Shown here piece by piece: positions 3,602 through 64,000 of a stretch of 64,000 bases of DNA. Within the stretch, counting starts at the first letter, position 1. Each line of letters opens with the position of its first letter. The translations under genes were made by a program, and so were the position numbers. This DNA is from Stercorarius parasiticus (taxonomy: Eukaryota; Chordata; Aves; Charadriiformes; Stercorariidae). The notes beneath the pieces were generated by a model. That model made no database searches and was not told the DNA's origin. It was given only the letters and a program-made list of their open reading frames with translations. The stretch lies in NCBI GenBank assembly GCA_013396915.1, contig VWZL01005058.1, positions 234,876 through 298,875 on the forward strand, given 5' to 3'.

Positions 3602-4774
3602 TGCATTACCTACTGTGGTGGGCTGACCTTGGCTGGCTGCCAGGTGCCCACCCAGCTGCTCTCTCACTCCCCCTCCTCATCAGGAAAGGGGAAGAAAATA
3701 AAATGAAAAGCTCATGGATTAAGAATGAGGATAGGGAGATTGCTCAACAACTACTGTCATGGGCAAAACAGACTCAAGCAGGGGAAGATTAATTTACTTT
3801 ATTGCCAGTTAATAACAGAGTAGGACAGTGAGAAATAAAAAAAAAAAAACTAAAACCATCTTCTTCACCCTGCCACCTTCTTCCCAGGCTAAGCTTCACT
3901 CCTGACTCTTCTCCTCCTCTCCTCCAAGCAGTGCAGGGGAATAGAGATTGCGGTCAGTTTCATCTGCTTCATCTCTGCCACTCCTTTCTCCTCATGCTCT
4001 TCCCCTGCTTCAGCTTGGGGTCCCTCCCACAGGATACAGTCCTTCATGAACTTCTCCAACACGGGTCCTTCCCACAGGATACAGTCCTTCATGAACTTCT
4101 CCAACACGGGTCCTTCCCACAAGCTGCAATTCTTCAAGAACTGCTCCAGCGTGGGTCCTTTCCGGGAGGCACAGTCCTTCAGGAAGGGACTGCTCCAGTG
4201 TGGGTCCGCCATGGGCTGCAGTCCCTGCCAGAAAGCCTGTTCCTGCATGGGCTTCTCTGTGCAGGCTACATCTCCTGCCAGGAGCCTGCTCCAGCATGGG
4301 CTTTCCATGGGCTGCAGCCTCCTTCAGGTCACGTCTGCCTGCTCGAGCATGGGGTCGTCCATGGGCTGCAGAGAGGATATTTACTCCAACATGGTCCTCC
4401 ATGGGCTGCAGGGGGACAGCCTGTTTCATCATGGCCCGCTCCAGGGGCTGCAGGGGAATCTCTGCTCCGGCACCTGGAGCACCTCCTCCCCCTCCTTCCT
4501 CACAAACCTTGGTGTCTGCAGGGCTGTTTCTCTCACAGTTTTTTCACTGCTCACTCTCACAGCTGCTGCACAGTGTTTTTCACCCTTTCTTCGATACGTT
4601 ACCACAGAGGAGCCACCAGCATCACTGACGGGCTCAGCTTTGGGCAGCAGCGAGTCTATCTTGGAGTCAGCTGCAACTGACTGTCCAACATGGGGGAAGC
4701 TCCTGGTCTCTTCTCACAGAAACCAAACCTGCAGCCCCCTTGCTACCAAAACCTTGACACATAAACCCAATACA
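3602..4774 (+). mobile_element. LTR-like element (probable solo LTR of an avian endogenous retrovirus)
   Basis: About 1.17 kb of sequence built from repeated ctgcag/tgctccag-type words. It begins near tgtggtgggctgacc (3614) and ends aaacccaataca (4774), which is TG...CA as LTRs do. It resembles a long LTR family common in neoavian genomes. If the left end is taken at 3602, a 4-bp TTTG flanks both ends (3598-3601 and 4775-4778) as a possible target-site duplication, but that is weak evidence. AATAAA-like strings lie near 3697 and 3834. No gag, pol or env frames lie inside or beside it, so it would be a solo LTR. Open frames of 140-260 residues across it are repeat artefacts. Confidence 0.6.
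4028..4210 (+). repeat. 45-bp tandem repeat array inside the LTR-like element
   Basis: Units begin at 4028, 4073 and 4118 (period 45 bp), each with the order cacagg/cacaag, a cttca core, ctccaa/ctccag, and gggtcctt. The first two units are identical and the later ones are progressively diverged. The array yields the repeated EKFMKDCILWEGP-type artefact peptide on the minus strand. The identical pair suggests recent expansion. Confidence 0.93.
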
Positions 4775-7700: not shown

Positions 7701-9240
7701 AGCACATGGGTGGTGAGGGCACCATTCCCTGTGCTGCTTTTCCAAGGTGTGAGGTGTCAGAGGGAGACAGAGGGATAATCCCTTCCTCTGCCAGAGAAAA
7801 CTTGGAAGCAGCCTTGAGACAACCAGGTGGTGGCAGAGGGCAGGGGGAGAGGAGCGTTCATTCCCTCCTGGGGAAACAGTCCCACTGAGGGTGGAGGAAT
7901 TATATGTGAAACAGGTGAGAGAGGAAATCCTATTCTCAAGGAGTGTCCCTCAAGGAGGGATGGCTGCGAATGCAAGTCTTTCTTCCAGCAAACACCTCGC
8001 TAGCTGAGTTTATGGTAAAGGTGCATCCCATGCAAAAGGGAATGGCCACAGCAGGATGGAGAGGGAGCAGATGTGCACACCCCCATGCACAGGGCATGTC
8101 ACCAACTGGTAAAAATCACCCTTCAAATCCCCTCAGGGGACTCAAGCAGGACAGCATATGTGCTGTGCAAGAGGGAGCAGATCCTCACTGGTCTTAGAGA
8201 GGCTCCAGTGCTCAATTGCAGGTGACAGCGGAGGATTTGGGCTTGGAAGGGGCAAAAAAATTCTTTGTAGCATGAAATAGCATGCCTGCCTCCTGGAGCA
8301 GGTTGGACACTGCTCTGACATCTCCTGAACAGAGGCCAGATCTGCTGGGCCACTATGGACCCTGTTTTGCCCCCAGTGTGCTGAGACCCTGTGTTTGCTG
8401 CAGGGGAAGCATGGGTCACCAAACCCAGGGCTGCAGAGGTAGCTCAGACCTCAGGACCGGGAGTGCTAAGGAAATGTGTGCTGTCAGAGCGTGAGCCTTT
8501 CTGTGCTCTCCCAGCAGGAGCTTGGCCGCTTTGGACCTTCGCTGGTGGACATTTGGATGCTACAAAGAGCTACTGTCACAGGTTCTGAAAATTCATATTT
8601 GGGCCAACAGCTGTGTACCTGGGTCCCAAGGAGCTTCCCATGCAGTGGGCATGCAGAAAGTCTGCAGTGGAGCTGCGGGTTCGTCCTAAACCTCGAGGTG
8701 GAATGACTGAACCACTTTTCTTCCTTCTCACCTCAGTGGCGACATGAGAAAAATGAGTTTCAGACTTGGCATTTAGTGCTCAGGCAGCCCCTGAGTTGTC
8801 ATAGATTTAATTCAGGTACACCAATAGTCCACAGACTAAATTGCATCAAGTATCTAGGACTACTCAGGAAAGGCAGCTGGCATTTTTTCACATTTTTACA
8901 CGACAAAAATACAAAATTTCACTGAAAAAAAAATCATTTTGGTAAAGCTTTTCCCATTCTTTAGGGGGAAAAAAATTGTTCATTTTCATTTGTCAAGTTT
9001 TCCTTCTTGTTTTTTAATGTGACCCAGTAATGGATTATGCAAGCTTCGTCCCAGGCATGCAATAATTACTCTGTGGATGAAGGATTTATAGTCAGGGCAT
9101 GTAATTGGGAACTTTTCACACACGCTTATTTTCAAACACATAAATAAATAATCTCAGAAGCAGCTAAACTCAGTATTAGTAGCCGAACTTCCCTTGCATA
9201 TTTCTGCAGTTCACAGTCCCATTGCCTGAGGAAAGAGTAA
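4779..9240. other. Unannotated intergenic stretch
   Basis: No gene or clear repeat was recognised. The segment at 7.6-8.7 kb is GC-richer with several short overlapping open frames on both strands and no domain. The rest is AT-rich ordinary intergenic sequence. Confidence 0.5.
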
Positions 9241-10090
9241 GAATCATAGATTCATAGAATGCCAGGTTGGAAGTGACCTAAAGGATCATCTGGTCCAACC
9301 TTTCTTGGCAAAAGCACAGCCTAGACAAGATGGCCCAGCACCCTGGCCAGCTGAATCTTAGAAGTGTCCAATGTTGGGTAATCCATCACTTCCCTGGGGA
9401 GATTATTCCAATGGCTGATTGTTCTCCGCGTGAAAAATTTTCCTCTTGTGTCCAGTCGGAGTCTCCCCAGGAGTAACTTGTACCCATTACCTCTTGTCTT
9501 TTCCACGTGACTCCTTGTAAAAAGGGAGTCTCCGTCTTCTTTGTAGTCACCCTTTAAATACTGCAACATGGTGATAAGTTCTCCCCTAACCCTTCTTTTC
9601 TCAAAGCTGAACAAACGCAGTTCTGTCAGCCTTTCTTCATATGGCAGGCTTCCCAGTCCTCTTATCATCTTTGTGGCCCTTCTCTGGACCGTCTCCACTC
9701 TGTCCATATCTTTTTTCATAGCGGGGACCAGCACGAGACACAGTATTCCAGGTGTGGCCTGACAAGCGCTGAGTGGAGCTGCATCAGCAGCTTTTCAGTA
9801 GCATGCATCATCTTTGCCGCATCAGCACACTGTTCACTCATATTGAGCTTGTTGTCCACCAGGACCCCCAGGTCCTTTTTCACAGAGCTGCTCCCCAGAC
9901 AGGTAGATGCCAGCTGGTGCTGCACTCATGGATTATGTTTTCCCAGGTGCAAGACCTTACACTTGTCTGTGTTGAACTTCATAAAGTTCTTGTTAACCCA
10001 CTCTTCCAGCCTATCCAGGTCTTCCTGCAGGGTGGCTTTCCCTTCCCAAGTGCCCACTTCCCCACTCAGTTTGGTACCATCATTTGGTAA
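9241..10090 (-). mobile_element. CR1 LINE fragment, reverse-transcriptase 3' half
   Basis: On the minus strand from about 10090 down, the translation follows the C-terminal half of the CR1 reverse transcriptase. In order it shows LDRLEEWVNKNFMKF and KCKVLHLGKHNP (to 9926), KKDLGVLVDNKLNMSEQC and SALVRPHLEYCV (9925-9716), then VQRRATKMIRGLGSLPYEER, FSFEKRRVRGELI, KTRGNGYKL and HWNNLPREV (9734-9321). It ends in the CR1 3' UTR, with the ATTCTATGATTC terminus at 9241. The frame shifts at least twice and part of the thumb region looks deleted, so it is an inactive 5'-truncated copy of about 850 bp. It is more diverged than the copy at 52.0 kb. Confidence 0.95.
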
Positions 10091-22000: not shown

Positions 22001-23324
22001 CTGCATAAATATGTATTTAGACCATCTTAATAATACAGAAATGCCCATCGATCAGGTAATCACATATTTAGACTGTGGGAGAAAAGGCTGTTTTGACATC
22101 CAGCAGTTTCTTACATCCATTTAAAAAAAATAAATCATCAAAGCAAAAAAGATGAGAAGACCATATCATGACTTTACAAGGGCAATAAAGGGAAGATGAG
22201 AATGTGCAGGAGAAAGCAAACTCTGGGCTGTAGGGAGGTGGTAAAGCCTTATAATGTCCAGACTGATCTACTGAATTTTGTAGGGGGGAAAAAGAGCGGT
22301 CCGTCTGGGACTTCTAAATACCAGGATTAATCCTGAAGTGAAAGTTCACGATTATATTACTCAAACCCATTAGAAACAGATTTTCGAATGGAAATGCTGA
22401 CTTTGCACTGTAACACAAGCAGTCAATATTATAATTTCATATTTCCTGTTACCATGGACAGTTAATACACTAAAAAGAAACAGAGGACCTGGAAAATTTA
22501 TACAAGAGACCGCGTCATGCCATTTGTTACCATGCTGTTAATTACACTTTGGTTCCCACTGCGTGACTCAGCGCAGGCTCGCCAGCCCCCTGCATCTGGA
22601 AGCCATCCCCTGCCCTCCTGCTTTGGGCAGTTAACCCTACACCTTTTGGGTGCTGCAGAGGATGTGCCACCCTGCCAAGTCTTCTGCATGCTGATCAACT
22701 CCCAAACACCCATCAAAGTGATAATCAGCGTGCCGTGTGTTACTGGAGACAAGTGAGGCGCCAGGAGGCCACGGTGGTGGTCACAGGGCTGGTGGGAGGG
22801 ACCGTCAGGCAGCACCACACCCAGGGGAGATAGGGAAAAGCCAGAGCAGGTGGTAGAAGTTTGGACAAGGTCGTATGGGTGGCAAGAGAACGGGGGGGGA
22901 AAAGGCAAGGAATGAGACGATGAGAAAGGTAGGTCAGAAAAGGAAGGAAGGCAGTCTGGAAAAGCTGCTGCCCTCAGAAACATTGCCTTATTCATGCACT
23001 ACATGGTGGGGCTGCCTGGAGAAGAGCCGCTTCTGGACAGGGTAAGGGCTCTTGGGACAAACTGGGAAGCCCTGAATTATCCACCCCAGCATAGGGAAGC
23101 AATGAGGTAATGGAGCTGAAGGGGGAGGCGGGGGAGCGGAGGGAAAAGCGCATCAAAGAGATAAAGCAGAAATATTATCTTCTTTTGCAGTAGGGGACGA
23201 AGCCCCCATTTAACTTTTCCATGTTTTCTTTGGACCGTTTTCAAGCGAGGCACACTGGGTTGTGTGCTACGTCTCAGGCAAAGAAACTCCAGCAAAGCAA
23301 GCCCAGCTCCTTGCTTTGGCATCT
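10091..23324. other. Long intergenic stretch, no supported genes
   Basis: Thirteen kilobases without a recognisable exon, RNA gene or datable repeat. Much of 11.6-20.4 kb is AT-rich. Some AT-rich, TAAT-containing stretches (for example 18480-18620, 20080-20380 and 21930-22110) have the look of conserved non-coding DNA, but this cannot be judged from one sequence. The GC-richer parts at 20.8-21.5 and 22.5-23.1 kb give open frames on both strands with no domains. Confidence 0.5.
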
Positions 23325-23720
23325 CAGTCGGCAGTAATTTATATTGCTGTTCCTCCTTAATAAAATCCATCGTGCACTCCAAAAGAGTAACTAGGACACT
23401 TAGTTTTTATTCCACATGCATCTCATTTGTCTTCAGCAGGTTCTTCCATAATCTCATCATTATTGCAATCACCCTCTGAGGACAGCTGACTTGCATTAAT
23501 CAGCTAGGCCTCTCATCCCTCACTAGATTCTTTACAGTTTTACTGTGCCCCTGGGCATCCTAACTTTACTTGAAAAATTAATAAACCTCCCCTCTCTTAT
23601 CTTACCTTATTAATGTCTGTCTTTGTAACCCATTATCCCTGCATCTCTTTGGTGACCATTTGAGGATGTGGTTACCACCAAAGGATTGTGCCCTGGTGAG
23701 GCAGCACACAAGAGTGCCCT
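23325..23720 (+). repeat. Duplicated non-coding element, copy A
   Basis: This is the partner of copy B (28009-28390), in direct orientation and 4.7 kb upstream. The conserved blocks occur in the same order, from ttcctccttaata near 23351 to a cacaagagtgccc end (cacaccagaatgccc in B). Homology starts and ends sharply near both limits, which favours duplication of a defined element or a repeat insertion over duplication of a large region. No reading frame is shared between the copies. Confidence 0.85.
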
Positions 23721-26700
23721 ACATAATTGAAAAAANAAAGAAAGAAAAAGACCATAAAAACTTTCAAGTCCAACATCATTGTTTACAAGACAGAATAAAA
23801 ATATGGGAGTTGCTTAGAACCCAATATAGGCTCTTAGGACTCATCAGATAGTTCCTTCTTGCCTTATTCCTCTTTCTATGTAAGCACCCCCTTGCCCTGC
23901 AGCCCCACCCATACATACCCCAGCGCCCACCCATCCCTTCCCTCTCATGCACTCTATTAAACCTGACTCGTTCGTTTTAGATGTTTTGAAATCCTGGTAC
24001 ATTAATCACTTGTGTTTGCACACACTTTATGTGGGTTGTTGGTCATGGTCTGTAGTTATACTGGCTGTCTCCCTTGCTTACTTAAAAGTACAATCCAATT
24101 GAAAATAAAGATTTTGCAGGTTTGCTCATTTCACACAGCGATAGCAGCTGGTAAGTGTCTTTTGCAATTCATCAGAGGCCTCCCAGACCACCTGCTCTTG
24201 GCATCCTGCAAACAGCTGGCTCTGTGTAAGTACCATAAGCTATTATCTTACTCAATAAATAATGAAATAAAGAAAGAAAGCAGGACAAAACCACATCTTT
24301 GTAAATAACGTACATTCACGACTAGTCATGTCTCCTGTTTCAGAGAAGAAGAAAATCAAGTTAAGATCCTTTGCTGCATTTAACAGTACCTTATGACAGA
24401 AGATGGAGATAAACCAACGCCAATACATAGGGCTCTGTTCTTTCTTTCTTTTTGAAACCTGCTCTATTTCTGAAAAGACCATAGGGAGCTTTTATGAAAC
24501 TTCAGCTAATGTCACCAGATGTCCCACTATTGAGAGGTGACTCTCGGTCTTTGAAAGACTGCCCCACTTGGATTTTTTCGAAATGAACTTTTGTCACCTC
24601 TTTTTGGTCCCAAGAGCAGATACGAGGTCATTTTCTCCTCCCCAGTGCTCTGCTGCTCGTGAGGCTGCTGCTAGGTCTCCTCTGGGCTGGAGGAAGAGCT
24701 GCCGGCTTGTTCGATAGGAGATGGGCTGGAGCTGAAATCGGAAGGGCCATGGGCCACCAGAGCTGGAGCATGAAACGCATCCCTGTGACTGGGAAGGAAC
24801 TTCAGAGGTGAGAAGGAGGAAGAAGATGATGGGGGAGACGGTGCCAGAATATTCCCTCTGAAGATGAATAAAGGTTTTAACAGGAAAGTGCTGCATTTTG
24901 GGCACAAAGCCTGTATCTCATAAAGATTTTTATTTTTTAATCTATGAATTCTATGAGGTGCGTCTAACAGATTTCTTGCACTGCAAACAAAGGCAATAAA
25001 TAAATGCAATCTGTTGCATGAATGATTTATATCAGCACAATTTAAATTTAGGGTCTGATTTATCTTATTTTTTTTAAAATGGCCTCCTGTTTTATGCTCG
25101 CCATAAACTGAGGATGCGAGAGATGGCAGTTGGAGACCTGACTGCCTGAGAGGCAGAGAAAACTGGGCAGTTCAGTGCCTGCCACGCTGCGCGGGCACAG
25201 AGCCGCTCTTTCTCCCGCAGAGGAAAGCCTTGCTCGGCGGGCTGCCTCATTCCCTTTAATGGCAGTCCTCTTGTAGTAAGGTATTAATCACTGTGAGAAA
25301 GGACGCCTGACCCCAGCTCCTGTTATTGCAAGCGAGGACTGGGAGAGGAATGTTTAAAAGCCGGCTTTTAACATCCTGTAAAAAAAAAATACTTGTGATG
25401 GTTTTCAGAACGACTATTTTCTCCCTCTTGCCTTGCAACCACCATACGGGATTTGCTACTGAGAGTGCGGACGGAGGTACCATCCCCTCTCCTTAAATCA
25501 GACGGAGCGGCGGACTCCAAAAGTAGGGTGGAAGGGAAGGAGCCCTCGTTTGATCCCATCTGTGCCAGGCAGCACAGCTGAGCTGGCACTGGGGTGTTTT
25601 AGTTTGCTCCTGTCATAGATCAGTGGTGAGTTAATGCCTTTCTGACACAGCGTGTAGCCAGGAGGGGGGCGAGGTAGGTACTCTGCCTCAGAGAGATGTC
25701 TCTGATGGGCTCCTTAAAATCCTGTGATTGACAGGGCCATGCCATGCACTTCTAACGAAGCATTTAAATGCCCCGGAAAGTCCAGCAAATGTGCATGACA
25801 TCCTTGCAGGTTTTTCTGTTTCATTTCAACCTTCCTGCCCTTTCCAGTCTCTCTCTCTCTCCTCTCATTTCCAAGAGCAGTCAATTCCAGAGGCCAATTC
25901 GCACGTAAACATGAGATGCAGACAAACCTGCCCAGCACTTACCTCTCCTTTGGGTCAATGCTGGGGACAAGTAGCCAGGAAGAAAAGTCTTACGAAAACC
26001 CTGGTGCAAACACCACCAGGGGCTGTTTTCTGATAATGCTTTTCAGGACTGGCTGCCAAGCCTGCGACATGGCAGACCATCTCTTTGGGCCATTGTCATG
26101 ACGGCATGGCCATTGGGCCATTATTCCAGCAGCAGGGCAAGCCCATTCGGGGATCATGGCTGGCCAGAGGCTGTACAGAGGGAACCACTCACCCCAGCCT
26201 CTGCAGGCGGTGGTTTTCTGGTTAAATGGGAGCAAAGGAGCAATGGACTTTGACAAGAGTTGAGCACTTTGACTGCTTTGATGAATCCTGCGAGGTGTTG
26301 GGAGAAAAATAGCAGAATGGGTGGCAGCACCTCCGTGGGTGTCTATGGGATCTGCGGAGGGTGGAGAGAAAGATCTAAATCGGTCTCAGATACTGAATGT
26401 TTTGTGCCTCCTCTTTGGTGGCATTTATGTACTTTTGCCACTAAGGAGATGAATCCTGTTCTACCGAACATTATGTGGTTTCTTGCGCTTGCACTAAACT
26501 GGAGCCTGAAGCAAAAGCCCAGACCTAAATGTTCCTCCATTCTGCGTATCAGATTTTCTTTATGCCCTATATCTTGCAGCTTTTTCTCTTTTTGCCACTA
26601 AGCATTTTCTGAAACTTGTGGCTAGAAGCTATAGTTTTTATGATATTTTTAGTACACTGCATGGTTGTTTAAAGTGCACCTTATAAAACTTCAGTCCTCA

Positions 26701-28008
26701 GCCAGCTCCCTATAAACTGGTTCTGTTTTACATCAACAGGCTTCAAACCTTCCTTGCCATTCCCCACCCTCCCCTTTTAATAACGAGGCAATCTATAGCA
26801 ACAATTTCTCTTGCATGTGCTGATGCAGCCTACTCAGAATTCAAGACAGGAGGCTTTTACTTTACTTTATTATTTCACCAAGACTAAAATCCTCCAGACA
26901 CTATTTTCATTTTTAAGAGCAGCCTGGGTAAACACTGAAGGTGGAATTAAGAATTTTGCTCTTGACAGAAAGAAGCTGGAATAAAATGAACATGGGACAT
27001 AGCATAACCTAGCCAGGAACCCGAAAAAATTAGCTAGCAAAAAAAAAAAGCTAGCAATTCATTATGAGCACAGGCTCAGTCTGTCATAACTCATGCTCCA
27101 AAAGTCCTGAAACACATGGGCAGTTCAGATCTCATTTCTGGTCTGGCCAAATCTGCGGTCGAACTGGTCTTTCGATATTAATTTTGAAGAGTTTGGCTTT
27201 GCAGCCAGCAGCTTGTGTTTTTCTATAAAAAGCAATGATGGGCAAAGCTCAAAGGGTATGAGGTTTGGTTTACATCTACCCTTCAACAGCAAGGATATTT
27301 ATTTGAGGGTTAAGTGAACTACTGCAAGATCTGCAAAAATGGGTTAGAAACACCACGTTTTTTCCAACGATACTGACCGCTTCTTTTCCATCAGGATGGA
27401 ACTATACAAGTATCCTCTCCTGTATGATACTGATGTCTCCAATTAATATATATTACAATTCTTCTATTGGAGAATGCCTGGAACACCCAGCCAAGGCCAG
27501 AGCACCACTGCAGCAGGCACATGGCATATATATGTAATAAGAATCTTAATGCTGTTTAAAAATAGGCATCAGTGAACCCCATTCATCACTTTTGCACCAA
27601 CCTCAGTGGGGTTTCTTTTGCTTGGATGGAGGGCACATGCTTGTGAAAGTGGAACCTCATCAGACTAAGGATGCCAGAAAGGAAGTATTTCTACTTTATC
27701 ATGGTTATTGTTATTATTTTGTTTCAGTGTTATTTTCACTGAGGGAACGGAGTATCAAATTCTCACTTGTGGAAGTTCTTCCCGGTCTCTTCTGCATATC
27801 ATATTCCACTCCAGCACTTGCTTCCCTTTCTCCAAGCACCGTCATGCGCAAGGCAACATGTTTTTCAAGCTGTCTGCAACTGCCGTTGAAACTGCCATAC
27901 TTTAGTTAAAAACTAAAAGTAAATGGAGGATATGGAGTATCAATGGGAGGTAGCACTCAAGCTGATGGTGCAGCACTGTTAATTACACAATACTTTTATT
28001 GAGCAATT
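23721..28008. other. Spacer between the two duplicated elements
   Basis: About 4.3 kb with no supported gene. Small CpG-containing parts occur near 25160-25250. Open frames of about 100 residues occur on both strands and overlap each other without domains. An A-rich stretch (aaaaaanaaagaaag) with an ambiguous base at 23736 follows copy A. Confidence 0.5.
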
Positions 28009-28390
28009 CAGTGGTAATTCTTACTGCTATTCCTCCTTAATAAGATCCATTGTGCACCATAAAATAGTAACTAGGACACAGTTTGTATTCCACATGCATC
28101 TCATATCTCTTTAGCAGGTTCTTCCATATCCATAATCTCATCATTATTACTATTACCCTCAGAAGACAGTTGACTTGCATTAATCAGACAGGCTGCCATT
28201 CCCTTGCCAGATTTTCTGCAGTTTTATTGTGCTTTTGGACATTTTAATTAACTTGAAAAATTAATTAAAAATCTTACCTTATTAATATCTCCTACCTTCC
28301 CCCTACTCAGTAATCCATTATCACTGTTTATCATCACTGACCATTCAATTCCAGAATGGTCTTGTAATGGGAGAGCACACCAGAATGCCC
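28009..28390 (+). repeat. Duplicated non-coding element, copy B
   Basis: This segment aligns collinearly with 23325-23720 over its whole length. Shared blocks include ttcctccttaata, agtaactaggacac, ttccacatgcatctcat, agcaggttcttccat, aatctcatcattatt, gacttgcattaatcag, acttgaaaaattaat and tcttaccttattaat. I estimate about 70% identity with several indels not in multiples of three, so it is not a coding duplicate. Copy B has a 6-bp insertion (atccat duplication) near 28130. The AT-rich words include TAAT/ATTA homeodomain-type cores. It could be a paralogous regulatory element or an unlisted old interspersed repeat. Confidence 0.85.
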
Positions 28391-38846: not shown

Positions 38847-41389
38847 CCAACAGAAAGTGAGACCCCCTTGGTCCACCACTGTATTAACAGGAAAAGTCAC
38901 AGTCCTGCTAGAGCTAAATAGAGAAGGGGCAGGGGACATTACACAGGTGGGGAGCCGAGGAACAAAACAATCAGGTGGCCTTTACATAGTTTTACACAGG
39001 CTGTCAGGTCTCCTGGATCCAAGCCTCCTGAGACCCACGTCGTACTTTTCTAGAAGAGTATCCTACCCCTCATAGCCCTAACCTTTTCCTGTTGCTTTTA
39101 TCCTAGAAATCTCACTTAGTTTCTCTCCATTCAGATTTGCTATGTCCTACCCCTATGCTCATGGGAGAAACATGCCAATATTTTGCCTGTGTTATGTAGG
39201 GGAATAGTCGGAAGAAAAGACTCCAAATCTCTTTTCTCTGCTCTCTGTCATATCTTTGCTAGGGCAGACTGTAGCCCTAAGATCCTTCCAAGATCAAATA
39301 AATGCCTCCAGGAAGAAAAGATCAAAGGAGAAAAAAGCTTAAGAAGTCACTAGTCTGGGTATTTCCTTGTATTAGAGTGGCCCATCATGATTCAAGCAGT
39401 CTCCTGGGTTACAAAATTTAAGGCGCAAAGCGTGCTTCTCCGGGGACAGAGGCCCCCAGGTGAGGGAGAGCATCCGTAGGGCACATCCACACAGACAGGA
39501 GGAGGCCTTGTGCATTCACTTTTCCCTTCTCCCAGACATCTAGAAAAGAGTCAGACTCTACCCGCAGGCCAGGTATCAATGTTAGTACCGATTATTTCCA
39601 AGATTCACAGCAAGTCTTGCAAGCAGCACGGCGCTAGCATGATGGGCTCAGAGAGCCACACACTTCTAGGCACCTTGCTGCCTCTTCTGCCTGCCACAGC
39701 CAGGGTCCTGTTCTGGCCAAGCACAGAGACATGGGGACCAGGAAGGTCACAGTTCTTCCAAAGGCATTCAGGGAACACACCGAGGAATGGCTCACTTGTT
39801 TCTAGACCTGAGCCGGGATGTCCTGACTGCCCCGTTATGCCAGGAGGGCTTTTCCGTGCATTCAACACCAATCGAGGGATGCCCGCACTGCACACAGATT
39901 ATCTGCTAGGTGCCGGATGTTTCCCAGCCTTTCTTCAGTATCTGTTTCTGGGAATGGAATTTCAGCAATTCGTTTTCTTTTAGCTGCCTTCACTTTTTCT
40001 CCCTTAGTTTTGTTTTCCATGGCATCTTCCTCATTCCTTTTAATACTGCTACTATTAAAGTACAATAAAGGTCACCTTAGGGTGTCACTCATGGGTCTGT
40101 ACCTTGCTTGCAGAAACCCAAGGGAATTTGATCCAAATGACTTAAAGTTAGTCACACATGCAGATATCTTATTCAGTCAAGACTCTAGTGAAAGGGAATG
40201 TGTTAAAAGAGAAAATAAATATCTCTTAAGGAGCAATGTTGCTTTGCAACATTTTACCTTCTTCACCAGAATGTACTTTCTTCAGGAACTGGAAAAGCCT
40301 ATGCCTTACTGAAGTTTTATTTAAGTAATTGATTTGTACAGATGTATTTTCTTACCATTTAACAATCTCCTTTTGCTAGAAACACTTTCGAAAGTTTCTG
40401 CACCAGCTGGACAATTAGGATTTAGTAGGAAAACAACAGGCGCCCACTTTATACCGTAACAAAGGTAGGACATTTCACATGAGAAGACAAATCTTGACAT
40501 CCCTACACAGTTAATCCAAAGCCATCCTGGCAAATGGGAGCAAAAAACCTTCCCCAAAGCACAAATGCATGACAGCTTTGTTTTGGAATCCCAGATCTAG
40601 AAACCAATCCTCATCCGCGAGGGGCTTGTGTTCAGAACAAGTACTAGGGAGGAGGGAAAGAGAAGAAAAATTACTTCTCCACTGTCTGTCTGCTTCTCCA
40701 GCCCTACAGCCTGCTGGGGCCCTACACAGAGCAGGAGTATTCACAGGTTTGACTAATGTTGTACTGGCTGCAGTCATTCTCTCTGGACAGACCCAGTGGT
40801 CTGGGTTTGCTGGTGTTTGTTGAGTGTTGTCTGCACTGGGAGCACCCGAGGTCTCTTCCCAGCTCCTTAACTGGGCAGCCCAATTGCAGCCCAGCCCCTT
40901 TCCTGGCACTCCGCAGCTCAGCCCCCACATTCGCTGGTCCATGAGTTGCAGCCCAGGCGCCCTCGCCAGATTCCCACTGCCCCCAGACCGCCCAGAAGAG
41001 ATTAAATGAGCAGCCACAGGAACTGTCAGAGGCACCCTAAAGCTGCTGCTGGGGGACCCTGTCAGCTGTCTTGCCGGGACTGGCTGAAAAGAGGCTTTGT
41101 TAGGGCCAGAGATCTGTGTCCCCTGATTTCTTCACTCCTTGTGTCTATTGCATTTTTGCAGGCTGTGTGCTAAGCAGCTGAGAACCCTCTGAACCGGTCC
41201 TCAGCCCAAACCTGTCATTCCAGCGAAGCTCTTTCTGTCCTGTAACTCAGCTAATTTCGTCACGGTTTCCTGCCAGCATCAATAAGAAACAGACTCTATC
41301 ACAAACAACGCACAGCACCAGCACCGGCCTCGGAGCTGGCAAAATGTGGCACCCACTGCATCCATACCCCACACCCACAGCATCCCTAC

Positions 41390-41670
41390 GGACCCTTTGC
41401 GTGAGAGGGGGCTGCTCGGAACCACTTAAAGCGGCAGATTCCCGCAGAGGGAGTGAAAACCTGTGCTCTGCCGCCACCTCTCCTCCTTCGGTGGCTGCTG
41501 GGGGGTTTCCACGGAACAACAGTGACACCCAGTGGCCGCGGCCACCCGGCCGAGCCGTGTAATCCCTGCTGCAGGCATCGCTCGGGAGCGGGCAGATGCT
41601 TTGCCTTCGGTATGTGAAAAAATGTTGAGCAAAGTACTGCCAGGCCGGCGAGACAGCAGCCTTACGAGAA
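41390..41670. promoter_or_regulatory. Small CpG-rich patch (candidate orphan CpG island)
   Basis: I count about 20 CpG dinucleotides in roughly 280 bp, including clustered sites at 41537-41556 (gccgcgg, cccggccgag). The surrounding DNA is strongly CpG-poor. No recognised gene starts here. It may mark an unannotated transcript start, an enhancer, or simply local GC-biased sequence. Open frames over it lack domains. Confidence 0.45.
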
Positions 41671-44600
41671 CTGCAGGGCTGGCTTTTCAGCAGCAAACCT
41701 GTGCTTTACTCAAGGCAAGAGCAAAGGAAGAGTCGCGGTTCAGCCAGGGAGTCTTGGGATCCGGAACTATGCAAAGAATGCGGGATAAAATGTTTTGGTG
41801 AGCGGGTGGAGGGTATTTATAGGAGGAGGAGGTCACCTCCATGCCTCTGGCCGCTAAATCCTCAAACAAAAAAAAGTGATGGGGTGTAGCCCCACATTAG
41901 TGAAATTGGCTTGGGGTTATTTTTCCTTCTCATTCTTTCAAACTTTACAGACGCGGTTGCAGATCTTCCAGCCACAATCAAGGGACTTTAAAAAAAAAAA
42001 ACCACAAATGCTGTGATTCTCCTGATACCTGCCCATCTCTGGAACCTTGGCTCCAAAATAGTGAGTACCTGGAAAGAGGCAAAATCAAAGGGTCAGTGAT
42101 GCTGCAACCTCTCTGACTTCTTTTCCCCAGCAGTCCAGCTTCAGTGTAAACGATGACAAGAGCTACCCTTACAAAACTGACCTGAGGCTAAGTCTGCACT
42201 GAAAACCTCTATCTGTGGAACCACATTGGTTTAAGCAGTGACATTTTTATTCCTGTTTTTTATTCCTGCTGAATCCCTAGAGCAGGATTAGCTGTACTAG
42301 CAAAAGCTCCTGTGCAGGAGTGATGGGAGGCAAGTTAACAGGCAGCAGTCTCCGCTCACTAGCGGTGCCTGGGGCAGCCCTAGCTCAGCCTCAGTGTCCT
42401 TTCCTCCTCACCCTTCTCCCTCTGAACCACAGCCCATTGCCCATGAGCTGTGCCTGTGCTGGAGGGCTCTGCAGCTGCGCCAGCTCAGCTCTCCTGCTAC
42501 AAAGCAGCCCTTCATCCTCACCCTTGCCTGTAAGTTCCCTTATACAGCAACATCCCAGTATTTCCATTATGAATTCACTGGTGATAGTACCGATTACAAG
42601 TGCTTCAAGGCAATTTACCACAACTCCTACACCAATCTTTCCACTTTCAAGATCGCTAATAGTAAAAATACTCATCGGGGGAAAAATGCCATCATAAAGG
42701 AAAGAGAAGGGCTCCTTGCATCTGAGTCACTGCTTGTGCATTAAAGATCAAGGACTGGAGTAACTACACAAGAAGCCACGTCCCGATGTCATCATCTTTG
42801 GCTGCACCGTAGATATCACAGATCTAACATTTAAATAAGTTACATGGATGCTGAGAAAGGAATCCATGACCCATGAATGTTGATAAGTGGCTTCTTGGTT
42901 CCTGAGAGGAAAGAAAAATAGATGATTAATTAAGGTAACTAGTAGCTTTATTTCTAGCTTTCCCAGTAGCTCCAGGGGTATTCAGGACTGTCAGTGAATT
43001 GGAAGAAAATCAATAACTAATTGAGAAGTAAACATTTGCTGTTACAGGTCATCCCCTGAAACCTCAAGCCATGGAAGGGGAACCCTGTTCTTGTAAGATC
43101 TCCATCCCTGGGGCTGGTTGAAGACATTGGCAGGACGTTAGTGTGGCCCCCTCCTCCCACCATGTGGTAGATCTGAGGGAGGACAGATCTTGGGGCCTCC
43201 TGCTAGAGTAGGAGGTTGCAATCTCACTCCAAATCATTGCCTGCTTCTCCCATTTTTGTGCCACTCACAACAGTGCCTGGGATGTCCCCAGCCTTACCTC
43301 AGCCCTACTCATGCCTCCTAAGAATCACTTTCTTTCTAGAAATCCTGAAGGTGGGTTCCTCACTGTCAGCGAACATTTTGGGGATGCCATGGGACACCTG
43401 AGCAGAGCTGGAGCTATTCTGCATGAGCTGGCATCAGCAGGTGACTGATGGCACAGGTGCCACTTCTAGAGGCATGTCTGCGGGTGGACGCCCAGAACAT
43501 GAAAAATTCCCCTTTCGCAGGATACACCCCACTGATCTCATGACAATGAAATGGCTTTTTACCACTGCCGCTTTTGTAGTTACCGTTGCTCCTGCCCTGG
43601 CAGGCAGGCAGAGGGATATGCTCCCTGTCCTCATCAGGGAGATACTCCCACCGCAGGGCACCTGTCACTGCTCCATGTGTGGAGGCCAAGGAGGAAGAGG
43701 ATAAGCTCTGCTTTTCCACCCCTCACTCAGCAGCTGCAGCAAAAGGTCAACTCACCCAGCCTGGAAGAAAAACCTTCTCACCCAGGTTACTTGCTGGCTA
43801 CTGCTGCTGTCTTCCCTCCCCAAGCTTAACAGGGAAAAACCCATGGGAAACCAGCTACTGCTAGATGCACAGCAGCTCCAGTGAGGGGCCCGGGTCAGCA
43901 GCAGCAGTGGTAATGTGCCAGGACTCCTGGAGACAGGGTACGGCTGTCAGCACAAGAGGCGGGTGCCAAAATTACGCCAGCACCTCATTAACCCAGAGAG
44001 GCATCTCTGCGCAGAGGAGGAGGCAGGGATGGCCGAGGAGGGGGAGGCCAGGCTGCTGCTCGGGTGTCAAAGCACGGGCAATAATTGACAGCTCCATGCT
44101 GGCAGGCAGCAACGAAGGAGAAATCTGTAGACTTGTCCTCCCAACGTGAGGAAAGAGCCGTGCGGTTCTCTAACAACCTCGCTTCAGCATCGCCTTCCTT
44201 TTCATGCAAGTAACAGCTACCAGCAGCAGCATCTCCTGTCAATCGCTGACAAAGGATCCCACCTGGCACCGCGCAGATGCTGCCTCATGAACAACAGGCC
44301 ACCAGGAGAGAGGTGTTGAGTGTTGGAAGATCTATAGGCATCAAACTCTTCTTTGTAAAAGAGAAAAAATGTGGGTGGCAAAAACAAAAAGGATGGGAAT
44401 AGAAAAAAGACAGGGAGAAAAACCTGCTGTGAGGAAGTACAATAAGGGAATAAATCACAGGAAAGAAGATGGTGGCCCAGCCAGGCTGGTGTGGTGAATT
44501 GTAATGCTTTGCTGGTTTTGGTTCCCCCTCCCGATTTGGTCCTGCACTGATGCTGCTTACTGTCCCTGGGCACCAGAAGTGAGGCTGTGATGGAATTCCA

Positions 44601-49620: not shown

Positions 49621-50305
49621 GAAAGCTAATTACATATCAGGATAAGCAGTGGGTATTTGAGAATTTGTTAAGAAATACAGCATAAAACTAGCATTACTAC
49701 TGATTTTGCAAAATGGCAATTAAATGCGAGGTTGTTTGAGAACCAATATAACTGGGTCATTTTAATACGTCACATAATTTGTATTCAAAAATTCCTGCAT
49801 TTTAATGTCCATTAATATTATCTTGAAAATAATTTATCACCTGAATAAGTTAATAAAATTAGGAATGGAAATAAAGCCCAGCAGCAGTACACAGTTATTG
49901 GTATAGGTATAGGCTGGATGTTACTAGCCGTTAACATTGGCTTCCCGTGTGAGTAAGAGAAGATGCAAAGCACCCAATTCTGGTTCCAGTTAAATCAGTT
50001 GGACAGGAGTCAAACACTCCCCCACTCTTTGGTTCAGTTTCCCCATCTGTAGCACTGTAACAGGGCACAGCATTTTCCATCAAAACTTTATTAAGACTGG
50101 CCAGGCTGTGAAAGAAATTGCGATGGCTCACAGTGCTCTGTAAGCGCACAAAATATGGGAGACATTGACACAGTAAATGTAGGCAAAGCCCTGGAAAGAA
50201 GCAGAAGAAAAAGTTGTTTTCATGTTATGTCCACTACCACTTTTAATACTTGCCACCTTTAATGGCTGGTTTTCACTAGACTACATCTGGTTTTCACTAG
50301 TTAAA

Positions 50306-50388
50306 GATGTCCCTGCTTACTGCAGGGGGTTGGACTAGATGAGCTTTAAAGGTCCCTTCCAACTCAACGCATTGTATGATTCTATGAT
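50306..50388 (+). mobile_element. CR1 LINE 3'-terminal fragment
   Basis: This contains the CR1 3' UTR hallmark gggggttggactagatgag, then aggtcccttccaactc and the terminal gattctatgat. It is about 80 bp, severely 5'-truncated and in plus orientation. A 14-bp direct repeat, ctggttttcactag, occurs twice just upstream (50266-50279 and 50287-50300). Confidence 0.88.
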
Positions 50389-52013: not shown

Positions 52014-52357
52014 ACCAACGCTTATAAATACTTAAAGGGTGGGTGTCAGGAGGATGAGACCAGGCTCTTTTCAGTGGTGCCCAGTGACAGGACAAGAGGT
52101 AATGGGCACAAACTTAAGCATAGCAAGTTCCATCTCAACATGAGGAGGAACTGCTTTACTTGGAGGGTGGCAGAGCACTGGAACAGGCTGCCCAGAGAGG
52201 TGGTGGAGTCTCCGTCTCTGGAGACATTCAAAACCCTCCTGGACGCGTTCCTGTGCAGCCTGCTCTAGGTGACCCTGCTCTGGCAGGGGGGTTGGACTAG
52301 ATGATCTCCAGAGGTCCCTTCCAACCCTATGATTCTATGATTCTATGGTTCTATGAT
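52014..52357 (+). mobile_element. CR1 LINE 3' end, relatively well preserved
   Basis: Read on the plus strand, this encodes the C-terminal end of the CR1 polyprotein ([53 protein letters not shown]). The stop is followed by the conserved 3' UTR (gttggactagatgatctcc, ggtcccttccaaccctatg) and four ATTCTATGAT-like terminal units ending at about 52357. The reading frame is intact over the retained part, making this the best preserved CR1 in the window. It is a 5'-truncated, dead copy of about 340 bp. Confidence 0.96.
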
Positions 52358-56963: not shown

Positions 56964-57048
56964 CTTACGTTACTGTTTTCTTTCTCATTTCCTGTACTGT
57001 AAAAATATCTTTTTTTAAGAGTTCTACACAGAAATGGAATATTCCCTG
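56964..57048 (+). repeat. 85-bp inverted repeat, left arm
   Basis: This is the partner of 58240-58324 in opposite orientation, with one mismatch in 85 bp. The segment runs from cttacgttactg to gaatattccctg. The high identity implies a recent event, or gene conversion between the arms, compared with the decayed repeats elsewhere in the window. There is no coding potential. Confidence 0.95.
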
Positions 57049-58239: not shown

Positions 58240-58324
58240 CAGGGAATATTCAATTTCTGTGTAGAACTCTTAAAAAAAGATATTTTTACAGTACAGGAAA
58301 TGAGAAAGAAAACAGTAACGTAAG
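58240..58324 (-). repeat. 85-bp inverted repeat, right arm
   Basis: The reverse complement of this segment matches 56964-57048 at 84 of 85 positions; the single difference is G versus T, at 57036 in the left arm. Both arms have the same T7/A7 run and no indels. Homology stops abruptly on both sides. The outer flanks show no obvious target-site duplication, and the ends do not match a DNA transposon terminus that I recognise. Confidence 0.95.
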
Positions 58325-62000: not shown

Positions 62001-62090
62001 CTCATGCAGCAAACGAAACACAGCCTTACACCATGTGTAAGAAATTTACCCATTTATCATAACCTCCAACAAAAGGCTTGTAACAGAAAT
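59031..62090. other. Unannotated intergenic stretch
   Basis: Nothing coding or structured was recognised. The stretch is AT-rich with short open frames lacking domains, poly-T/poly-A runs (for example near 61368) and AT-rich text near 61680. A stretch near 60757-60800 has a faintly repeat-like character, but I could not assign it to a family. Confidence 0.5.
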
Positions 62091-62490
62091 AGAATCATAG
62101 AATGGTTTAGGTTGGAAAGGACCCTAAAGATCATCTAGTTCCAACCCCCCTGCCATGGGCAGGGACATCTCCCGCTAGACCAGGTTGCTATAAGTTCCAT
62201 TTGACCTGGCCTTGAACACTTCCAGGGATGGGGCATCCACAGCTTCTCTGGGCAACCTGTTCCAGTGCCTCACCACCCTCACAGGAAAGAATTTCTTCCT
62301 TATATCTAATCTAAATCTACCCTCTTTCAGTTTAAAACCATCATCCCTCGTCCTATAGCTACATGCCCTTGTAAAAAGTCCCTCTCCAGCTTCCTTGTAG
62401 GCCCCCTTCAGATACTGGAAAGCTGCTATAAGGTGTCCCTGGACCCTTCTCTTCTCCAGGCTGAGCAACCCCAACTCTCTCAGCCTCAGA
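62091..62490 (-). mobile_element. CR1 LINE fragment, 5'-truncated 3' end
   Basis: Read on the minus strand, this encodes the C-terminal end of the CR1 reverse-transcriptase protein ([43 protein letters not shown]), then a short 3' UTR ending in the ATTCTAT-type terminus at 62091. Only about 400 bp remain, as is usual for 5'-truncated CR1 insertions. The frame is open through the retained coding part, so the copy is not very old. It lies about 1 kb downstream of the receptor stop, on the same strand as the receptor, so it could fall inside a long 3' UTR. Confidence 0.93.
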
Positions 62491-63528: not shown

Positions 63529-64000
63529 CTAAAAAGAGCCTGATCTCAATGTTGCAAACTTTTTGGGACATAATATTTTCATGAAAGCCATTCGAAATTT
63601 ATCATGACAGAGAGGATAGAGAAATGGATTCAGAGAGGAATTGAGCCACAAAAGCCAAAAGGTTATTTCATACAAGGAGTTGTGAACACAAGTTCCTTTG
63701 CAGGCCCCAAGAATAATCATTAGTAAAGTGTATGGGGCCCAGCAAATGGCAAACACACACACAATTATGGCAAGTGACTTCGCTATTTTCTTGTCCTGCT
63801 GCAGTTTTGATCTGGTCTTTGTACAGAAAGAAACAGAAAAGTCATTTACTGGAGTTACAGAACTGCCTCTGGATGGAGATGAGCTCTCAGCTACCAAGGA
63901 GTCTTTCTTTGGCCTCATGGAAGAAGAAACACTGTCCTCTGTTTCCAATGAAGGCGAAAACACTCCTAGCCTCAGCGAGAAGCAAAGTCTCCAGGACAGG
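63529..64000 (-). CDS. HRH4: Histamine H3/H4-type receptor, C-terminal part of last coding exon (partial, probable HRH4)
   Basis: The minus strand is open from the window edge to a TAG stop at 63529-63531, giving 156 visible residues; the N-terminal part (TM1-TM5) lies beyond 64000. Visible residues 1-71 are a Ser/Thr- and basic-rich stretch fitting the long third intracellular loop. Residues about 72-99 are TM6 with the aminergic CWAPY motif (63730-63744). Residues about 110-130 are TM7 with NPFLY, the NPxxY motif (63616-63630), followed by PLCH. Helix 8 (FRMAFMKILC) ends in a Cys that could be palmitoylated, and a short tail follows. By family knowledge this is a plasma-membrane Gi/o-coupled histamine receptor; mammalian H4 acts mainly on immune cells. 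CWAPYTLLMII and FWLLW resemble H3, while the KKIAKSLAI and FMKILCPKK stretches fit either paralogue. The symbol HRH4 rests mainly on the gene-poor DNA downstream. The first residues near the edge could be intronic if a splice site lies close by; no stop or obvious acceptor was seen. The GPCR call is firm; the paralogue is less so. Confidence 0.85.
   Translation of the reverse strand, partial: LSWRLCFSLRLGVFSPSLETEDSVSSSMRPKKDSLVAESSSPSRGSSVTPVNDFSVSFCTKTRSKLQQDKKIAKSLAIIVCVFAICWAPYTLLMIILGACKGTCVHNSLYEITFWLLWLNSSLNPFLYPLCHDKFRMAFMKILCPKKFATLRSGSF

What the first reader, a model, noticed from the sequence alone, without database searches (positions are those of the whole stretch)
23325..28390. 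Two diverged direct copies of a ~390-bp non-coding element 4.7 kb apart
Segments 23325-23720 and 28009-28390 align end to end in the same orientation. They share many exact blocks of 13-17 bp (for example ttccacatgcatctcat and gacttgcattaatcag) at an estimated 70% identity, with indels that rule out a coding duplicate. Flanking DNA does not align. Such a pair within a gene desert next to a receptor gene would fit ancient duplicated enhancers with conserved homeodomain/POU-like cores. An unlisted ancient interspersed repeat is the main alternative.
Basis: seen in the sequence. Interest (0 to 1): 0.75.

Follow-up and report, generated by a model that had tools for sequence, protein, structure and literature searches.

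The report
Duplicated noncoding element near ZNF521
A stretch of about 390 apparently noncoding letters occurs twice, 4.7 thousand letters apart, with no third copy found in this bird-like genome, in a gene-poor region beside a developmental control gene, so it looks more like a locally copied, possibly regulatory element than a scattered repeat, although its function is untested.

Summary
Copy A (23325-23720) and copy B (28009-28390) are direct copies. The core is identical at 229 of 269 aligned bases (85%); the last ~100 bp are related but more gapped; the flanks do not align. No third copy was found in the 1.138-Gb genome: A and B as queries return only each other (2 candidates each), and two core patterns with up to 3 mismatches return only A and B. 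A CR1 3' end of the same window gives 5,164 candidates. This speaks against a dispersed repeat and for local duplication.

The "receptor gene" is a histamine H3/H4-type exon at the window's right end; about 153 kb to the left of A a ZNF521-type gene ends. My exon scans were insensitive, so "gene desert" is likely, not proven.

Core-tail contrast and TAAT/ATTA density fit a duplicated homeodomain/POU-type enhancer; block clustering and a direct core-tail identity test are not significant. No other vertebrate genome could be searched, so conservation and activity are untested. A neutral local duplication, about 28-78 million years old at recalled rates, is a close rival.

The parts
23325..23720 (+). 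Copy A of the ~390-bp element
   Evidence: Alignment with copy B; no third copy found
23334..23618 (+). More similar core of copy A
   Evidence: 229 of 269 aligned bases identical to B
23619..23719 (+). More gapped tail of copy A, ends in AGCACACAAGAGTGCCC
   Evidence: Local score 27, not reached by random pairs; alignments
28009..28390 (+). Copy B of the element
28014..28290 (+). More similar core of copy B
28291..28390 (+). More gapped tail of copy B, ends in AGCACACCAGAATGCCC
23410..23426 (+). Exact shared block TTCCACATGCATCTCAT in A
   Evidence: (contig 258285)
28088..28104 (+). Exact shared block TTCCACATGCATCTCAT in B
   Evidence: (contig 262963)
23488..23503 (+). Exact shared block GACTTGCATTAATCAG in A, with GCAT-TAAT (POU-like, label recalled)
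28172..28187 (+). Exact shared block GACTTGCATTAATCAG in B, with GCAT-TAAT (POU-like, label recalled)
63529..63999 (-). Neighbouring gene: 3' exon (TM6, TM7, stop) of a histamine H3/H4-type receptor; frame open to the contig end
   Evidence: PDB sequence search: H3 receptor 133.5 bits, H4 receptor 95.4 bits; Pfam 7tm_1 60 bits

Best explanation
The pair is a locally duplicated, probably cis-regulatory element. A ~390-bp unit was copied once, in direct orientation, to a place 4.7 kb away in the interval between a ZNF521-type gene and a histamine H3/H4-type receptor gene, and both copies were kept. The core diverges more slowly than the tail because it carries homeodomain/POU-type binding sites. 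The most likely mode of action is as two related distal enhancers (a shadow pair) acting on ZNF521, with POU-III and other homeodomain proteins as likely binders. Shown: two copies found, local, related end to end, TAAT-rich, gene neighbourhood. Inferred: selection, enhancer activity, ZNF521 as target, POU binding.
For: Only two copies found in 1.138 Gb: two DNA queries (2 candidates each) and two patterns with up to 3 mismatches (2 forward, 0 reverse, 0 control hits each). Core-tail contrast of the alignment 0.74, reached by 0, 4 and 2 of 300 simulated uniformly diverging pairs at three settings; the mean scores of settings two and three bracket the observed score of 246. TAAT/ATTA count 11 in A and 18 in B, against means of 3.6 and 5.6 in GC-matched windows (1.9% of 479 and 0.6% of 312 overlapping windows reach it, A's and B's own windows included). 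TAAT/ATTA of A kept in B: 10 of 11, against 22 of 42 for other A/T-only 4-mers. ZNF521-type 3' exons at contig 75029-75172, 77886-77999 and a stop at 104929. A 40-UCNE cluster is listed with KCTD1, PSMA8, SS18, TAF4B and ZNF521 (PMC3436827, passages). HRH4 and ZNF521 are listed for one 1-Mb interval in cattle (PMC4198703, passages). Pou3f1 binds the mouse Zfp521 locus and raises its expression (PMC4095939, passages).
Against: No cross-species conservation shown. K2P 0.187 is also what a neutral copy 28-78 million years old would show at recalled avian rates of 1.2-3.3e-9. Mismatch clustering in the core is not significant. Base identity of the core (229 of 269) and of the 36-bp tail match (27 of 36) does not differ significantly (Fisher P 0.14), so the core-tail contrast rests largely on gaps. 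From B to A only 10 of 18 TAAT/ATTA are kept, against 22 of 52 for other A/T-only 4-mers. GCATTAAT occurs 5 times in the window, 2.6 expected. The receptor gene is nearer (about 35 kb from B) than ZNF521 (about 153 kb from A). Nothing places A or B in the published UCNE cluster. Gene conversion could also keep the cores alike.
Confidence: 0.45

Rival explanations
1. Unconstrained local duplication: a ~390-bp piece was copied 4.7 kb away some tens of millions of years ago by template switching or a similar accident, and both copies drift neutrally. The sharp edges are the edges of the copied piece.
For: K2P 0.187 gives 28-78 million years at recalled avian rates; the flanks do not align; block clustering is not significant; core and tail base identity do not differ significantly (P 0.14).
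Against: Core-tail contrast including gaps exceeds uniform simulation (0, 4 and 2 of 300); copies are TAAT-rich. The simulation takes the tail as part of the same event and uses simple indel settings.
Confidence: 0.37
2. Ancient interspersed repeat of an unlisted family, of which two copies survive recognisably.
For: End-to-end similarity between non-aligning flanks; an A-rich stretch follows copy A (23730-23749).
Against: Two copies found in 1.138 Gb where a CR1 3' end gives 5,164 candidates; two random survivors 4.7 kb apart would be a large coincidence; best terminal inverted matches 5 bp and best flanking direct matches 5 and 6 bp; no A-rich tail on B. Dfam/Repbase not available.
Confidence: 0.1
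3. Remnant of a larger ancient tandem duplication (unit about 4.7 kb) in which only the element is still recognisable, held similar by selection or by gene conversion between the copies.
For: Direct orientation at about 4.68 kb spacing is what a tandem duplication gives.
Against: No colinear similarity in flanks (600 bp left, 1500 bp right), so it must be very old, or the unit was never larger than the element.
Confidence: 0.07

Closest known systems
Duplicated conserved noncoding elements (dCNEs; McEwen et al. 2006, not held; known here from passages of PMC2020477, PMC5728398 and PMC3436827)
   Same: Noncoding elements with a significant relative in the same genome, near developmental regulators.
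   Different: dCNEs are described as lying near paralogous genes after whole-genome duplication; here both copies lie 4.7 kb apart at one locus, and cross-species conservation is not shown.
UCNE cluster listed with ZNF521 (PMC3436827, passages)
   Same: The pair lies on the 3' side of a ZNF521-type gene.
   Different: Whether A or B correspond to listed elements could not be checked; the table row names other neighbouring genes, not HRH4.
Pair of CNE enhancers of Sox21, CNE6 and CNE17 (PMC3480646, passages)
   Same: Two elements of one locus acting on one gene.
   Different: The passages seen do not describe the Sox21 elements as copies of each other; activity is shown there and not here.

Membership tests
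Duplicated conserved noncoding element (dCNE) | noncoding | tested here: inconclusive
   No segment of A or B passed the codon scan and no candidate internal exon lies in them; but these scans missed known exons, and frames of 104 and 109 aa overlapping A were not scanned with Pfam
Duplicated conserved noncoding element (dCNE) | significant similarity between copies within a genome | tested here: met
   E 3e-59 in the genome searches
Duplicated conserved noncoding element (dCNE) | conserved across distant vertebrates | not testable with these tools
   No other vertebrate genome is held; searched viral and prokaryote collections only, 0 matches
Duplicated conserved noncoding element (dCNE) | copies near paralogous genes after whole-genome duplication | tested here: not met
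   Both copies are at one locus; no third copy found. It is therefore not filed as a classical dCNE
Interspersed repeat family | many dispersed copies | tested here: not met
   2 copies found; CR1 control 5,164 candidates, 40 scored, 40 matched
Interspersed repeat family | terminal repeats, tail or target-site duplications | tested here: inconclusive
   Only 5-6 bp matches; A-rich stretch after A alone
CR1 retrotransposon (label recalled) | similarity to CR1 copies of the same contig | tested here: not met
   In the self-comparison of contig 84876-298875 (20 pairs listed) A pairs only with B; 18 pairs link CR1-type copies to each other; one is an unrelated inverted repeat
Regulatory element of a developmental gene desert | large noncoding interval beside a developmental transcription factor gene | tested here: inconclusive
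   ZNF521-type stop and receptor stop lie about 193 kb apart; no exon recognised between them except one weak candidate at window 24646-24807, but the scans are insensitive
Regulatory element of a developmental gene desert | enhancer activity or chromatin marks | not testable with these tools
   No functional data held

The most novel reading that the evidence does not exclude
An old in-cis enhancer duplication: two copies of one POU/homeodomain-type enhancer, 4.7 kb apart and without detectable relatives elsewhere in the genome, both kept under selection and acting jointly on ZNF521, perhaps specific to birds or sauropsids.
Probability: 0.3. Interest if true: 0.55.

Novelty: new member of a known kind. 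Interest (0 to 1): 0.4.

Why it matters
Most conserved noncoding elements are described as single-copy, and the known non-unique ones as stemming from whole-genome duplication (PMC5728398 and PMC2020477, passages). A two-copy pair at one locus would be a natural experiment on how an enhancer and its copy share or split work at a single gene. Zfp521 is reported to promote early neural development (PMC4095939, passages) and to be antiadipogenic (PMC3507953, start of abstract in the listing).

Tried and rejected
Dispersed repeat: set back with control. CR1: not met. Structured RNA: 0 Rfam families at gathering score in the window. Coding duplicate: thought unlikely because of the indels, but these scans are weak; ten of the 112 listed long ORFs were scanned with Pfam and none passed a cut-off (one, 22498-22998, had a 17-bit match to Anti-TRAP, cut-off 32). 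Block clustering as proof of selection: not significant. Core-tail base identity: not significant. Strings of the cores in papers: 1 unrelated yeast paper. Core patterns in viral contigs and prokaryote genomes: 0 matches. Three further genome queries (a control fragment, a tail-only query, the inverted repeat) did not complete. A covariance model of the core was built but could not be used on the genome and served nothing. Paper searches: no listed title or abstract start named this pair; of six papers only passages were seen (PMC2020477, PMC5728398, PMC3436827, PMC3480646, PMC4198703, PMC4095939), and of PMC3713010 one passage that does not give the GCAT-TAAT spacing rule I recall. No claim is made that the pair is absent from print.

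Full report
The observation. Segments 23325-23720 (A) and 28009-28390 (B) are two direct copies of one sequence. blastn aligns 23334-23618 with 28014-28290 at E 3e-63 to 9e-63; the local score is 269 against 20.6 +/- 2.3 for 200 shuffled pairs. Counting aligned bases only, 229 of 269 are identical (85%), with 28 transitions and 12 transversions. The remaining ~100 bp at the right end are also related: their local score of 27 was not reached by any of up to 150 random pairs from the window. They are more broken by gaps: 21 gap events over the whole alignment, 7 of them in the core. Flanks on either side show no relation.

Copy number. The genome holding the window (1.138 Gb in 3,254 contigs; the window is the last 64 kb of a 298,875-base contig) was searched with A and with B. 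Each gave two candidates, A and B themselves. Two core patterns of 35 and 31 places with up to three mismatches gave the same two places and none in the reversed control. The same kind of search with a CR1 3' end from this window gave 5,164 candidates; 40 were scored and 40 matched. The tool warns that common words are skipped and that no match does not prove rarity; still, A finds B at 78%, so a similar third copy should have been seen. A profile of A and B over contig bases 84876-298875 finds nothing else with E below 2. Two copies 4.7 kb apart in a billion bases point to a local copying event, not to transposition.

Where it lies. Solved H3 receptor sequences match at 133.5 bits and H4 at 95.4, Pfam 7tm_1 at 60 bits. 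By sequence it is closer to solved H3. I call it HRH4 only because of its neighbour: HRH4 and ZNF521 are listed for one 1-Mb interval in cattle (PMC4198703, passages) and, as I recall, are neighbours in human. The neighbour: contig 75029-75172, 77886-77999 and an exon ending with a stop at 104929, plus strand, spell C-terminal zinc fingers that I recall as those of ZNF521 (paralogue ZNF423); Pfam confirms C2H2 fingers, and the PDB search shows only other zinc-finger proteins among the 60 rows listed. A lies about 153 kb from that stop codon; B lies about 35 kb from the receptor's stop codon. Both genes point towards the interval.

How empty the interval is. My codon scans and the splice-site scan (contig 134876-298875 only) used recalled tables. 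They listed low-complexity or both-strand segments that I judged noncoding by eye, and one weak candidate internal exon, window 24646-24807 (+), between A and B, which I took for chance and did not test. They did not list the receptor exon or the ZNF521-type exons; those came from motif searches. So the absence of other exons is only weakly supported, and contig bases 1-44875 were not read. A published survey lists 40 ultraconserved elements with KCTD1, PSMA8, SS18, TAF4B and ZNF521 (PMC3436827, passages); whether A or B is among them is unknown.

Is it constrained? The tests are mixed. (i) Clustering of mismatches in the core: P 0.09-0.12 for four window sizes, 0.23 for the longest run, 0.14 for summed squares; not significant. 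(ii) Core against tail: the contrast of 0.74, gaps included, was reached by 0, 4 and 2 of 300 simulated uniform pairs at three settings, whose mean scores of 341, 267 and 203 compare with 246 observed. It assumes one event and a simple indel model, and gene conversion would do the same. Base identity alone does not differ (229 of 269 against 27 of 36 in the best tail stretch, Fisher P 0.14). (iii) Site content: TAAT/ATTA is dense in both copies, 11 and 18 against 3.6 and 5.6 in GC-matched windows, A's and B's own windows included. It is kept in 10 of 11 cases from A to B but 10 of 18 from B to A, against 22 of 42 and 22 of 52 for other A/T-only 4-mers (a looser script gave 11 of 11 for A to B). 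Age if neutral: K2P 0.187, 28-78 million years at recalled avian rates.

How it most likely works. The exact block GACTTGCATTAATCAG contains GCAT directly followed by TAAT, which I recall as a spacing accepted by POU-III proteins; the one passage I found on Brn2 sites does not state it, and the pattern is not rare (5 in the window, 2.6 expected). Pou3f1 binds the mouse Zfp521 locus and raises its expression (PMC4095939, passages). I propose a pair of related distal enhancers for ZNF521 with homeodomain/POU input, at 0.45; target, activity and binder are inferred. The main rival is a neutral local duplication (0.37). Dispersed-repeat origin is left at 0.1 and a larger ancient tandem duplication at 0.07.

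Relation to known kinds. It works, if at all, like a duplicated CNE or shadow-enhancer pair. It is not a classical dCNE, since those are described near paralogous genes (PMC2020477, passages).

Noticed in passing
56964-57048 and 58240-58324: Inverted repeat of 85 bp with 98.8% identity, arms about 1.2 kb apart; longest open frame across the region 95 aa. Probably recent. The genome search for it did not complete.
   Followed up: partly
52140-52346, 62089-62303, 50305-50386, 9240-9300, 9513-9632: CR1-type 3' ends and reverse-transcriptase fragments (label recalled); 62089-62400 has 5,164 candidate matches in the genome.
   Followed up: yes
4018-4148: Short tandem array, 45-bp unit, 2.3-2.9 copies, inside overlapping long open frames on both strands.
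   Followed up: no
24646-24807: The only candidate internal exon of the splice-site scan of contig 134876-298875, between A and B; weak and taken for chance.
   Followed up: no
41251-41750: Only stretch of the window that passes a loose CpG-island test (GC 0.58, observed/expected CpG 0.64), with long open frames on both strands; the one scanned there (41247-41705, minus) matched no Pfam family.
   Followed up: partly
63529-63999: The receptor exon is closer to solved H3 (133.5 bits) than to solved H4 (95.4 bits) sequences, although its position beside a ZNF521-type gene suggests HRH4.
   Followed up: partly
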